Source: Xylogone sp. PMI_703 (Eukaryota > Ascomycota > Leotiomycetes). Taken from it: a stretch of 64,000 nucleotides of DNA. The stretch is taken from assembly GCA_021399445.1 (NCBI GenBank), contig JAJTUQ010000012.1, positions 322,501-386,500 of the forward strand, in the 5' to 3' direction. Positions 2,285 through 11,565 of this stretch are shown here, in pieces. The translations under genes and the position numbers were made by a program. The notes under the pieces are model-generated. The model saw nothing but the letters and a program-made list of their open reading frames with translations, was not told the origin of the DNA and searched no databases. The first letter of the stretch is position 1. Each line of letters begins with the position of its first letter.

Positions 2285-5200
2285 CTATACGTCCTGCGAC
2301 CCAGGGAGCAGCCGTGACAGATCCGCAGTCGCATATACTTGACCATAGAGGTCTACCTCCTCTGAAAACATGGTGAAGATAGCCATCCGCCGTTCGGCAA
2401 GTCTTATTGCCTCCCTATCCTTCATCTTGCTTGCATCGTCTTTCGCTGCCTTAGCAAGCCTTGCGAACGCATTGTTAAAACAGCTGCGTTCGAAATCCGC
2501 AATCTCATACAATACTATCTTCTTACCGTCCAATGACTCGATGTCGTCAAACTCGGGGAAATCAACTGAGTTCAAGTTACCCTCTGCATTGTCCCGATCT
2601 ACAGACCCCAGGTCGTTGTACATACGGCACATGGTCGCCATGTGTCGACATACGGCAGCTGAGAGATACTTCTGCTTCCCCGTGGGAAAGCAATCCCCAC
2701 CGCCGCCACCAGGGGTTAATGTGGCACTGAGGAGGCAGCTGATGAATGCGTAGGAGTAAGGAGCGGCGATATGATCTGCAGACGTGGTACGGACCCAATG
2801 GAAGAAGGTATCGGAGGATCTCGGCCTCTGAACCTTACCATCTGCTCGTTGCATAAAGCGTGAGCTATCTTCTACTTGTTGGGTGTGAGCCAGGAGAAAG
2901 GTTCGCAGCTCTCGATGAAGATTTTGCTTGTCCCAAGCACTAGCATTCTGAACTGAGGGGTGGCCTTCAATGTAGTTTATAAACTTTGATAAGAGGCGAG
3001 AGACCTCCTCGTTGGTCAGGTTGGCACCGTGCGGACCCTTAGATCCGTTGACGGATCCATTCGCGTGTCCGTTCGCGTGTCCGTTCGTATGTCCATTCGC
3101 AGATCCATTCTTTTGTGTATAGTCTTCCCCGAATAGGTTCCCTATGATTTGTCGGAGTTCATCAAAGCGACCCAAGAATAAGGATCCTGCTTCATCTTCC
3201 ATAAACTCATCAATCTGGAAGATCAAGAGAGAGATAACGGACATGTCGTATATGAACGTGGTAGACGCGTAAGTTCGCTCACGGTTATTGGAACTCGTCC
3301 AGAAAAATGCCAAGACGTCGAAATACTTGGTCTCAGCCTTCACATCCTTGCGTGGAAACACATCTTCTTGCCGTGCTTTTAGGAGGGGAATGAATAGGGC
3401 TGCCTCCACCATCGAACACTGAAGCTCCCAATAAGGGAGCGAGCTGAAGAGGGGTGCTTTATGGAACAATTGGACATGTTTGTCCATGTGCGCCGAGACT
3501 CCATCGTGCCAGAGGCTGCCTCCAACAGTGGCACCAGGTGGGGAGCTGGCAGCTTTCAGCGCCGCAAGTATGTACGCATCCGTCAGCAGAGGAGATGCGT
3601 AGCTGACCTTCTCAATCCAGATGTAGTTCAGAGGTCGTTCGGTAAAGGAGTTGATGAAAGCGACACCACGAGCTATAGCATCATTCAGAGGTCCATGAAG
3701 TCCGTCGAAGAAAGCTAGTCGCCGAGCTTCAGCAAGTATCAAAACGGCATAGGCTGTCTCTTCGAGTGATTGATTCCATGATCCGTTGGCTTGTTGTTCC
3801 AGTAATGGTCGCAAACAGGCTTGGAAAAGGGTAATGGCAATTCGAAACTGTATTTCTTGGTCGAACACTCCGGGTCGTTTATTTTGCTCTATAGCGAAGA
3901 GCAAGTCCACTAGAGTTTCAACTAGGAGGACAGATGGATATAGGTAGCAGACGTTCTACAGAATATGGTGTTAGTGATAAATTAACAATCTTTCGAGATT
4001 CTACTGCGTACCCATTTATCCTTGATCTTGCCATCACTATTCCACCAGCAATCAGAGAGGAACTTTGCGAGCTTGAAAATCTGGCTAGAATATAGAGACA
4101 CGTCGGGCTGGTGCAAAAGAGCTGCCAAAGCATTGGAGTTTGCAGTACAGCTGGGATCTCTCTCGTCTGCATAAGTGCGGAAGTGAGTCTCTGCTTCAAA
4201 AGCTTGGATCATACTCTCTGGGCTAACAGATAGGCCTAGAATATTTAAGGAAGTGATAGTCTTCGCCATATCGTCCACGTCGGATTGGAAGTAAGGAGCT
4301 GCACCTGGTATTAGTTAAAGTATCCAGGAAAACGATACCTGTTGACGAAAAGACCATACCAAACCCGAGAACGCCGTTTTCCTTCTCAAATGAATTATCC
4401 ATTATCTCCGTCAGCTTTGATAGCTCGGCAGACTCCAAATCAGACGGTGCGAAGCCACCTCTGAGCAACGTTGACAAAATCTGCAGCACAACAGATTAGA
4501 CTCTCAGTATGATCACTTCCTGAATGTCACTTACCCAGGTAATCTCGAAATGCGTGGAAGGAAAGGCACTTGGGACACCGCCACTGTTCTGGCCTGCAGC
4601 GAATTTGATCACATGGCGGAGATAGGCCTCAGATTCATCGTCCCACTGCGAAGCATGCATCAAGTACGCTGCCGTTGATGAGGGAGATCCCATCATGGAG
4701 CCTTGAACTTTATGATGCTTGACTTTATCAAAATCGATCTTGCCGATGAATGATTCTAATGAGTGCAGTGCTGTCATTCTCCTCGGTCCATATAGATACT
4801 CAGCTCGGAACCGGGACATTTTGGCGTTGTTTATCTTGAGCAAAGTCGTCTTGCCATCAAATTCGAAAACAAGCGATGGATTTTCTCTCTGTAGATATTC
4901 GAGCATGGCCGGGACGATGATCTCAAAGCCGACGTGGTCTGTTGTCGATACGTCCCAAGCAGCGAGCTGTGATCGTAAGGAGACTGTTGCTCTCTCGATT
5001 CGATTGGTAAGATCTTGAGCATCGAGCTGAAGCTGGAGAGGCTCTGAAGCATAGCGTTTCAGAGCCAGAAGAGGAGCTGCTGTGTTCAGTAGTCCATCGA
5101 TCTGGGCACCTGTGCCAACCGCCCAACCACCTTCATCTGATTGTGTGGCCAGGAGATACTGGAAGCACTCGGGGAAAAGCCATTGCTTCTTTCCGTCGAT

Positions 5201-5341
5201 GCTCTTGGTCACCAACGATACCCAGGCTGTATCATAGGCAGCACAGCTCATTGCTCCTAGGCCATACTGCTCGTCATAATTTGCCAAGGTCCTTCGAAGC
5301 AGCGACCTGGCATCGTCTGCGAAGTAGTTGAGGAGCTGCAT
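2285..5341 (-). CDS. Bifunctional diterpene synthase (CPS/KS type, class II plus class I cyclase)
   Basis: Predicted to protonate and cyclise GGPP to a copalyl-type diphosphate and then ionise and cyclise that intermediate to a tetracyclic or tricyclic diterpene. Four exons (5341-4535, 4480-4360, 4298-4012, 3955-2285) joined at GT-AG introns give 961 aa, the usual size of fungal CPS/KS proteins. ATG at 5341 is the first in frame. The N-terminal half has the SxYDTAW-like segment (CAAYDTAWVS) and the class II acid motif DVDD at residues 316-319, after APYFQS. The C-terminal half has a DExxE metal-binding motif (DEFMED, 654-659) and an NSE-like motif (NDLGSVDRD, 852-860) followed by AEGNLNS and FPEF. 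Both active sites therefore look intact. Odd feature: an Asn-Gly repeat linker at about 688-711. The product (ent-kaurene, aphidicolanol, pimaradiene, phyllocladane type) cannot be told from motifs. Confidence 0.93.
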
Positions 5342-5873
5342 CGAAGGCAATGTAAGCTGTCGATTCAGGTATACTCCTTAGGCTCAATGATGATGAAATT
5401 CAATGTTGGTATCTCAACTCAACGGCCATGGTTGCTATAAAAGGCCCATAGGACCTCTTATAGTATCCCAATGGTAGAAACAAACTTGCCCACATCGTAA
5501 AACACATGTAGCTCTAGACAGGAGAATGAGTATCTACTAGCCGTGTTCTGAGATTCCGGTTGATCGGGTGGCCAAAAAGGCATGACCGGGCGGGCCCACC
5601 GCCTCAAGTAGACATCCGAAAAAGTCGGATCGGGGGAAATTATCATGTAAGATTCCAGGTACTCAGAACGATACTTCGGGTCAAACCAAGGGCAGTCCCC
5701 GATTTCGAAATTTTAAAAGATGTTTAATCTTCATAACGAGTTTTCAAACTTTTGCATTCCAAGGGTATATGAGTGAGTTTCCTATTGTTCAGATCTATAC
5801 GGTAAAATTTGTTCAAACTGAGCCTTCTCTATCCTCACACGGCAATCCTTGGAAAATCCCCTGAGTTGGCGCA
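5342..5873. promoter_or_regulatory. Shared divergent promoter of diterpene synthase and P450
   Basis: The 532 bp between the two start codons must contain both promoters. Two everted triplet pairs are visible: CCG-N6-CGG at 5556-5567 and CCG-N7-CGG at 5616-5628. CGG triplets are the half-sites of Zn2Cys6 regulators, one of which is encoded at 10.4-11.6 kb. That these are its sites is inference. CGG triplets also occur by chance at this density. Confidence 0.4.
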
Positions 5874-10325: not shown

Positions 10326-10385
10326 GTGTGGAGGTATCAATTTTTCTTTTTTGTTATTATTTGCCTTTTTTTTCCCCTTTCTTAT

Positions 10386-11565
10386 TCATGACAAAAGACC
10401 ACCAGCGAGGCGATTTTGCAGTTCTCTAACCAAATCCTTATGAACCGGCCAAGTATTGTCATTCACCACCTTATCAAGCATACCCAGTAGGTGATTTAGC
10501 TTCGCGACACGTGCAGATAGGAGACTTTGTAGGACGAGACGCTTATCCTCGTCGTCCAACTTCCAGTTATCTGTGCTACCGTCGAATGCTTGTCTTCGAG
10601 CCCCCCTCTCCTCGTCATCTTCATCTGAAAATCTTGGCCTTTTCTTGTCTCGGGAATCCTGGTCCACGATTGCGGGTTTACAATCCTCTCCGCTGATGCT
10701 ATATATATCTTCCAGAGTCCTCAGGATCTTCCTACACATTGATAGAAGTAGCATAATGTACGCAGGCTGGACGTTACAGTTGGGACACTCGACAAGCTTT
10801 TCACACTCAGCCAGAGCCGCCTTCTGTAGTTGTAACATATCGTCAAGGTCGCTAAAAAGCTTCCTCTGGCCCCATACGGCTACCTCAATGGACTCATACG
10901 TAGCAACAGCCTGAACGATGCAGTGGCAATTTGATTGAGACGCCGAGGGGGATGGGAGAACCGGACAACTCTCATTGTTGAAGCTAAAGTCGATCATTTC
11001 TAGTCCAGGAATACCGCTCCGATGTGTATTGTTGGCCTCGTCCGTGAAGGTATACGATTCGTTTTGCCATTGTTCGGTGAACTCACTAACCGGAAGCGCG
11101 GTCCTAATATTTTCTGCAGTGCTACTGAAATCCACAATGTCGAACTCAGGGCTAGAGTCGTGCAAGCTGCTGCTGTATGTTGGCTCCTGATCTACTAAAA
11201 ATTCATCGCCGGTACTCGCCTCGACTGTTACAGCTGCAGGTGTCGTCTCCCGTGTTGTTTCGTGTGACGAGGACACTTTCTTCTCACTATTCCCTCTGAC
11301 AGGAGCCCGATAAAAGCAGTCCAGTCTTTTTGCGAGGCACCGTTGGCAACCATTTGGGTCGCTAGAGCATTTCAACTGTGCAAGCCGCAAGGTTGGTAAG
11401 TTTCTTCTACGATCAATTCTTTTTAATACGCACCTTGCTTAGTCGACAGTTTGTGCAAGCAACTTTGGCCAGTGTACCCTCCCGTTTCCTAGAAAAGGGA
11501 GGACTGGTGGACTGGAAGGAGCACAACGCTTCAGGTGACTTTGTGTATCTTAGAGTATGGAACAT
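10386..11565 (-). CDS. AflR-type Zn2Cys6 transcription factor
   Basis: Likely pathway-specific activator of the neighbouring diterpene genes. Two exons: 11565-11434 and 11375-10386 (59-bp intron splitting the zinc cluster), 373 aa. The spliced zinc cluster is CTNCRLSKLKC then CQRCLAKRLDC, a perfect Cx2Cx6Cx6Cx2Cx6C pattern near residues 37-63. An acidic, Ser/Thr-rich middle follows. The C-terminal part has CHCIVQAVATYESIE, a helical segment with LLLSMCRKILRTLEDIY, and QSLLSARVAKLNHLLG, an arrangement typical of the aflatoxin-regulator (AflR) C-terminal domain. ATG 11565 is chosen because the frame upstream of the zinc cluster is open to it and the splice is in phase. Lying about 2.7 kb from the P450, with a hAT element between, it is the best candidate regulator. 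The regulatory link is inference. Confidence 0.85.

What the first reader, a model, noticed from the sequence alone, without database searches (positions are those of the whole stretch)
2285..11565. Compact, apparently orphan diterpenoid cluster: CPS/KS synthase, divergent P450 and AflR-type regulator
Seen: a 961-aa bifunctional cyclase with DVDD and DEFMED/NDLGSVDRD intact, a P450 with ExxR and heme loop intact, and a Zn2Cys6 AflR-type gene, all splicing in frame by eye. Known: such trios make labdane-related diterpenoids in fungi. Inference: these genes form one pathway. No GGPP synthase, transporter or second tailoring enzyme is seen, so it is a minimal or eroded cluster and the product may be new.
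Basis: partly seen in the sequence, partly recalled or inferred. Interest (0 to 1): 0.85.

Follow-up and report, generated by a model that had tools for sequence, protein, structure and literature searches.

The report
Ordinary fungal diterpenoid gene trio
This fungus carries an intact set of three neighbouring genes (a two-step diterpene cyclase, one oxidising enzyme and a regulator) that is shared with many other fungi and most likely makes an oxidised resin-like diterpene; it is a real but fairly ordinary pathway whose exact product is still unknown.

Summary
The window is contig C4 of Xylogone sp. PMI_703. It encodes a 961-aa CPS/KS with its three motifs intact, a 513-aa P450 and a 373-aa Zn2Cys6 regulator, all spliced in frame and matching NCBI proteins.

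'Orphan' and 'divergent P450' do not hold. The nearest named relatives are SonA (cyclase, 67%) and SonC (regulator) of Paraconiothyrium archidendri. In the P450's clade, 12 of 17 rows (window included) share a contig with a relative of the cyclase; three pairs have consecutive locus tags. Cyclase and P450 distances correlate (Mantel r 0.80; 0 of 9999 permutations reach it). The regulator shares a contig with a cyclase in 6 of 33 rows. One P450 and no clustered GGPP synthase is common in published fungal di-TPS regions. A hAT transposon with a perfect 8-bp duplication lies between the converging 3' ends of P450 and regulator and breaks neither gene.

Best explanation: GGPP made elsewhere is cyclised through CPP to an (iso)pimarane-type or similar tricycle and oxidised by the P450 under the linked regulator. 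No enzyme was assayed here. The class I domain changed unusually fast on this clade's stem, so a changed skeleton is not excluded. New member of a known kind; low interest.

The parts
2285..5341 (-). bifunctional CPS/KS-type diterpene cyclase, 961 aa; exons 5341-4535, 4480-4360, 4298-4012, 3955-2285
   Evidence: splicing, identity to NCBI protein, motifs, model
5342..5873 (.). 532-bp divergent promoter region shared by cyclase and P450; holds one 6-bp-arm inverted repeat at 5614-5630 (ATCCGA-N5-TCGGAT), a weak candidate regulator site
   Evidence: its 10-base core TCCGA-N5-TCGGA occurs at 25 places in the genome against 48 for the reversed control pattern, so it is not enriched
5874..7639 (+). 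cytochrome P450, 513 aa; exons 5874-6107, 6160-6288, 6338-6428, 6488-7153, 7218-7639
8075..10325 (+). hAT-type transposon inserted between the 3' ends of P450 and regulator; 8-bp target duplication GTGTGGAG on both sides; not part of the pathway
10386..11565 (-). Zn2Cys6 regulator, 373 aa; exons 11565-11434, 11375-10386; SonC-like

Best explanation
A compact diterpenoid cluster of a widespread fungal type. GGPP made by a synthase elsewhere in the genome enters the class II (beta-gamma) site, where DVDD protonates it to a copalyl-type diphosphate. The class I (alpha) site (DEFME, NDLGSVDRD) ionises this and cyclises it to a tricyclic olefin, most likely an isopimarane or pimarane. The P450, co-inherited with the cyclase and transcribed from the same divergent promoter, puts at least one oxygen on it. 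The Zn2Cys6 regulator switches the pair on. Shown here: intact genes, motifs, fold, co-inheritance. Inferred: every catalytic step, the skeleton, the site of oxidation, and the regulation.
Against: No enzyme was assayed, no transcript seen. AsCPS itself was not compared; its link to the Apiospora rows is by description, and Apiospora being the newer name of Arthrinium is recalled. Those genera hold other labdane-type cyclases too, so linking their isopimaranes to this family is a guess. The class I domain changed fast on the stem of this clade (C/N branch ratio 5.1 against 1.66 overall), and two of its close relatives (P. brasiliense, Periconia) have a broken NSE motif, so the window enzyme's class I product may differ or be weak. 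The residue pair H193/S258 does not settle CPP stereochemistry. No P450 named SonB or from Paraconiothyrium was among the 120 P450 rows listed.
Confidence: 0.72

Rival explanations
1. The enzyme works as a monofunctional class II synthase: it makes CPP only, because the alpha domain is decaying as in Apiospora, and another class I enzyme or a phosphatase finishes the product.
For: Alpha-domain acceleration on the clade stem; broken NSE motif in the relatives P0003 and P0028; truncated alpha domain in the Apiospora rows; a precedent with two separate enzymes (PMC10999977).
Against: In the window protein both class I motifs are intact, the alpha domain is modelled as a class I fold, and on its own terminal branch the C/N ratio is 1.75, near the overall 1.66. 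With SonA, P. brasiliense and Periconia left out, that branch merges with the stem and reads 2.9.
Confidence: 0.13
2. A bifunctional enzyme that builds another CPP-derived skeleton (tetracyclic such as kaurane, phyllocladane or aphidicolane type, or an oxygenated labdane) rather than a pimarane.
For: Members further out in the family have other products: aphidicolanol synthase-like P0066 and phyllocladanol synthase-like P0111 by name; MoDiTPS1 makes ent-manoyl oxide (PMC10512213, parts 1-3). Class I acceleration on the stem.
Against: The nearest enzyme family with a measured product line leads to a pimarane (PMC10999977). The named kaurene, phyllocladanol and aphidicolanol rows fall outside the 26-row clade that holds the window enzyme.
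Confidence: 0.3
3. A silent or eroding relic: formerly larger cluster, trimmed by transposons, no longer expressed.
For: hAT insertion inside the span; Tc1/mariner remnant and a copy of a C21 segment next to the regulator; retroelement to the left.
Against: All three reading frames intact and matching NCBI models; RIP indices of the three genes are not of the mutated kind; the hAT lies between two 3' ends and touches no gene or promoter; the same trio stands without such insertions being needed to explain its size elsewhere, e.g. cyclase and regulator on one 11.6-kb contig in Xylaria curta.
Confidence: 0.12

Closest known systems
SonA and SonC of Paraconiothyrium archidendri (names as in the protein database; I found no paper on them)
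   Same: Cyclase 67% identical over 99%; regulator 56% over 63%; SonA has DVDD, DEFME and an intact NSE motif.
   Different: The SonC record lacks the zinc-finger part. No P450 of that species was among the rows listed. Product and cluster map unknown to me.
AsCPS/AsPS and CiCPS-PS, (-)-sandaracopimaradiene synthases of Arthrinium sacchari and Cordyceps indigotica (PMC10999977)
   Same: Labdane-related fungal cyclases acting through CPP, with P450 genes nearby.
   Different: AsCPS has a truncated alpha domain; that cluster holds its own GGPP synthase. Their letters were not compared here.
pbc cluster of Aspergillus nidulans (ent-pimara-8(14),15-diene; PMC3323652)
   Same: Cyclase, P450 and Zn2Cys6 regulator in one cluster; DEFME motif; regulator overexpression turns on the cyclase and P450.
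   Different: Eight genes with GGPP synthase and HMG-CoA reductase; the paper gives DADD, the window enzyme has DVDD; sequence not compared here.
MoDiTPS2 of Pyricularia oryzae (normal pimara-8(9),15-diene; PMC10512213)
   Same: Bifunctional fungal cyclase with a linked P450 and transcription factor.
   Different: Larger cluster with GGPP synthase, dehydrogenase and transporter. P. oryzae rows here are 45-47% identical; which of them is MoDiTPS2 was not established.

Membership tests
fungal bifunctional CPS/KS-type diterpene cyclase | class II motif DxDD | tested here: met
   DVDD at 316; DxDD present in 116 of 120 rows
fungal bifunctional CPS/KS-type diterpene cyclase | class I motifs D(D/E)xx(D/E) and NSE-type | tested here: met
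   DEFME at 654 and NDLGSVDRD at 852
fungal bifunctional CPS/KS-type diterpene cyclase | three-domain alpha-beta-gamma fold | tested here: met
   model pLDDT 86.9; residues 7-545 match class II cyclases, 576-949 class I synthases
fungal bifunctional CPS/KS-type diterpene cyclase | makes a diterpene from GGPP by both steps | not testable with these tools
   needs expression and GC-MS
SonA/SonC-type cyclase-P450-regulator cluster | cyclase in one clade with SonA | tested here: met
   window with SonA, P. brasiliense and Periconia, support 100
SonA/SonC-type cyclase-P450-regulator cluster | linked co-inherited P450 | tested here: inconclusive
   met for the wider clade: 12 of 17 P450 rows share a contig with a cyclase, Periconia among them; no Paraconiothyrium P450 was listed, so not shown for the son genes themselves
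SonA/SonC-type cyclase-P450-regulator cluster | linked SonC-like regulator | tested here: met
   window regulator 56% to SonC; relatives on cyclase contigs in 6 of 33 rows
Zn2Cys6 (AflR-type) regulator | Zn2Cys6 domain | tested here: met
   Zn_clus E 2.1e-6
Zn2Cys6 (AflR-type) regulator | AflR domain PF08493 | tested here: inconclusive
   no match on the window protein; listed for three relatives
cytochrome P450 | ExxR and heme-cysteine loop within a p450 domain | tested here: met
   Pfam p450 E 2.5e-44; motifs read in P0121
gibberellin-type (ent-kaurene) cluster | cyclase groups with fungal ent-kaurene synthases | tested here: not met
   Fusarium ent-kaurene synthase P0109 stands far outside the window's clade

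The most novel reading that the evidence does not exclude
On the stem of the Xylogone plus Didymosphaeriaceae/Periconia clade the class II half stayed conserved while the class I half was remade, so this enzyme turns the usual CPP into a skeleton not made by its Xylaria and Diaporthe relatives, and a two-enzyme pathway yields an undescribed oxidised diterpene. The family would then show repeated rebuilding or loss of class I activity on a fixed class II base.
Probability: 0.22. Interest if true: 0.5.

Novelty: new member of a known kind. Interest (0 to 1): 0.22.

Why it matters
It removes an apparent orphan from the list: the trio belongs to a cyclase-P450-regulator cluster found across Sordariomycetes, Dothideomycetes and here a Leotiomycete, with gene trees that do not follow the species tree, as expected of clusters that move between fungi. 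If the class I acceleration reflects a changed product, this small cluster would be a convenient two-enzyme test of how fungal cyclases change skeleton while keeping the class II step.

Tried and rejected
Domain swap as the cause of the long class I stem: separate trees of the two halves (118 and 113 of 120 rows) both keep window, SonA, P. brasiliense and Periconia together and inside the same subfamily, but their sister group differs (Xylaria/Apiospora for the class II half; A. versicolor, Diaporthe, Fusarium and others for the class I half), so a swap from a distant cyclase is not supported, while a short-range exchange is not excluded. The same acceleration is also seen on the stem of 11 Xylaria-group rows (ratio 4.4) and on the SonA-clade stem (6.8), so it is not unique to the window.

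Stereochemistry from residues: H193 is H in 118 of 120 rows and S258 is S in 92, G in 26. S also occurs in a Pyricularia oryzae 70-15 row that may be the ent-8-hydroxy-CPP maker MoDiTPS1, so this was dropped as a predictor. The plant residue pair behind the idea is recalled.

Regulator binding site: the inverted repeat at 5614-5630 is perfect, but gapped repeats of this size are expected by chance in 532 bp, its core is not enriched in the genome (25 against 48 control) and it is absent before the regulator. Kept only as a weak lead.

Relics of a larger cluster: tblastn with 25 proteins (cyclases, P450s, regulators) against the window and three 10-kb loci to the left found only the three genes. 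No GGPP synthase match on C4. SDR, methyltransferase, transporter and acyltransferase relics were not looked for one by one; 40 ORFs or proteins in all were scanned with Pfam. Pfam and NCBIfam gave nothing for the whole cyclase.

Literature: no paper on SonA/SonC found. Searches were listings cut at 15, 15 and 20 papers; one search returned one unrelated paper; one search listed all 11 held papers that name P. archidendri, none about diterpenes by title or start of abstract. The library holds open-licence papers only. One search showed no diterpenoid from Xylogone in its 10 listed papers.

Caution on linkage: same contig is judged by equal contig length and organism in the protein tables. On megabase contigs that shows one chromosome, not neighbourhood; neighbourhood rests on consecutive locus tags (FOCG_18114/18115, diail_10006/10007, QQS21_007450/007451), near ones (CFE70_004916/004918, E0Z10_g1662/g1665, NUW58_g5765/g5768) and short contigs. 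Only the best 120 of 400 cyclase and 120 of 330 P450 hits were listed; trees used 45 and 31 of them, chosen by me.
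Full report
What is there. The window is contig C4, bases 322501-386500, of a 50.1-Mb fungal genome. Its cyclase is identical to a protein of Xylogone sp. PMI_703 that lies on a contig of 623,358 bases, the length of C4, so that is the organism; NCBI places Xylogone in Leotiomycetes, incertae sedis. The three genes of the finding are real and intact. The cyclase (minus, 5341-2285, four exons) encodes 961 aa; the P450 (plus, 5874-7639, five exons) 513 aa; the regulator (minus, 11565-10386, two exons) 373 aa. All three match NCBI proteins. 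Cyclase and P450 are divergent and share 532 bp between their start codons.

Not an orphan. The search returned 400 relatives, of which 120 were listed. The nearest is SonA of Paraconiothyrium archidendri (67% over 99%); SonC of the same fungus is a relative of the regulator (56% over 63%). In a tree of 45 of the 120 rows the window enzyme groups with SonA, P. brasiliense and Periconia digitata (support 100), within a 26-row clade of Xylaria and kin, Apiospora, A. versicolor, Diaporthe, Fusarium oxysporum, Conoideocrella and others. The P450 is 76% identical over 99% to one of Periconia digitata, and in a tree of 31 of 120 rows pairs with it at support 100. Of the 17 rows of its clade, 12 (the window's own among them) have the same organism and contig length as a listed cyclase; the five without are P0124, P0126, P0133, P0134 and P0135, though a second Pyrenophora teres row (P0139, outside that tree) does. 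Consecutive locus tags occur in F. oxysporum, D. ilicicola and Conoideocrella. Over 18 taxa with both genes on one contig the distance matrices correlate at r 0.80, reached by 0 of 9999 permutations; this control does not remove shared species history, but the groupings mix fungal classes. The regulator shares a contig with a listed cyclase in 6 of 33 rows, the window's included, and is conserved well beyond its zinc finger.

Not clearly minimal in an unusual way. The genome has 13 matches to the GGPP synthase family, none on C4. A published survey found a GGPP synthase in 19 of 56 fungal di-TPS regions and one P450 in 11 regions (PMC4617483, passages only). So GGPP from elsewhere and a single P450 are common. 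The cyclase occurs once in this genome; the only other match is 41 residues long at E 1.3e-4.

Surroundings. A 2251-bp hAT element (8075-10325) with an 8-bp duplication GTGTGGAG sits between the 3' ends of P450 and regulator; three more copies lie in the genome at 94, 93 and 82%. To the right follow a DDE_3 transposase remnant (11815-12297) and, from 12384 to about 15451, a copy of a C21 segment at 92 and 83%. To the left lie, beyond a stretch that reads N, parts of a retroelement, and further off a DDE_3 element, a phenol hydroxylase-like gene, a kelch protein and an MFS gene that nothing ties to this cluster. The three genes do not bear the RIP signature used here; one bin at 17001-18000 does.

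How it most likely works. GGPP from a synthase elsewhere is cyclised to a copalyl-type diphosphate at the class II site and to a tricycle at the class I site, then oxidised by the P450; the regulator acts on the divergent promoter. Steps beyond gene presence, motifs, fold and linkage are inferred. The pimarane guess rests on two things. First, in Arthrinium sacchari AsCPS makes CPP, which AsPS converts to (-)-sandaracopimaradiene (PMC10999977, whole text in two parts), and Apiospora rows that fit the description of AsCPS lie in the window's clade. Second, isopimaranes are reported from Xylaria, Diaporthe and Paraconiothyrium (PMC9609704 passages; Xylaria longipes also in PMC12365674 passages). 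Against it stand the many other cyclases of these fungi and the class I history below. The odds given: 0.72 for the cluster acting as a bifunctional-cyclase, P450, regulator pathway as described, of which the pimarane skeleton is the weakest part; rivals overlap and need not add up to one.

The odd feature. With one tree fixed, the class I half has 1.66 times the total branch length of the class II half, but 5.1 times on the stem of the window's clade, 6.8 on the SonA-group stem and 4.4 on the Xylaria-group stem; the window's own tip has 1.75. Without P. brasiliense and Periconia the stem ratio is 4.8; without SonA too, stem and tip merge and read 2.9. No significance test was made. P. brasiliense and Periconia have a broken NSE motif and Apiospora has lost the class I part. 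The class II half is steady and the class I half labile in this family, so the final skeleton should not be read off from relatives.

Verdict. Observation confirmed; 'one pathway' supported; 'orphan', 'divergent P450' and 'eroded' not supported; 'new product' open. New member of a known kind.

Noticed in passing
8075-10325: hAT element with intact 8-bp target duplication; other copies at 94, 93 and 82% on C22, C24 and C14.
   Followed up: partly
12384-15451: Dispersed copy (92 and 83%) of a C21 segment at 134829-138636, carrying a Zn2Cys6 ORF of 178 aa (12378-12914, minus).
   Followed up: partly
18585-34667: Transposon-rich stretch: Copia gag and RT ORFs, DDE_1 transposase, helitron N-terminal and PIF1 helicase ORFs.
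   Followed up: no
26316-28866: HET-domain ORF followed by an NB-ARC/TPR ORF, as in fungal incompatibility gene pairs.
   Followed up: no
17001-18000: AT-rich bin (22% GC) with a RIP-like dinucleotide signature.
   Followed up: no
own genome C21:462713-472162 (L023): A GGPP synthase-family match about 9 kb from the best regulator paralogue (40% over the zinc-finger part): possible second terpenoid locus.
   Followed up: no
P0003 and P0028 (relatives): P. brasiliense and Periconia digitata cyclases keep DVDD and DEFME but have a broken NSE motif, hinting at loss of class I activity.
   Followed up: partly
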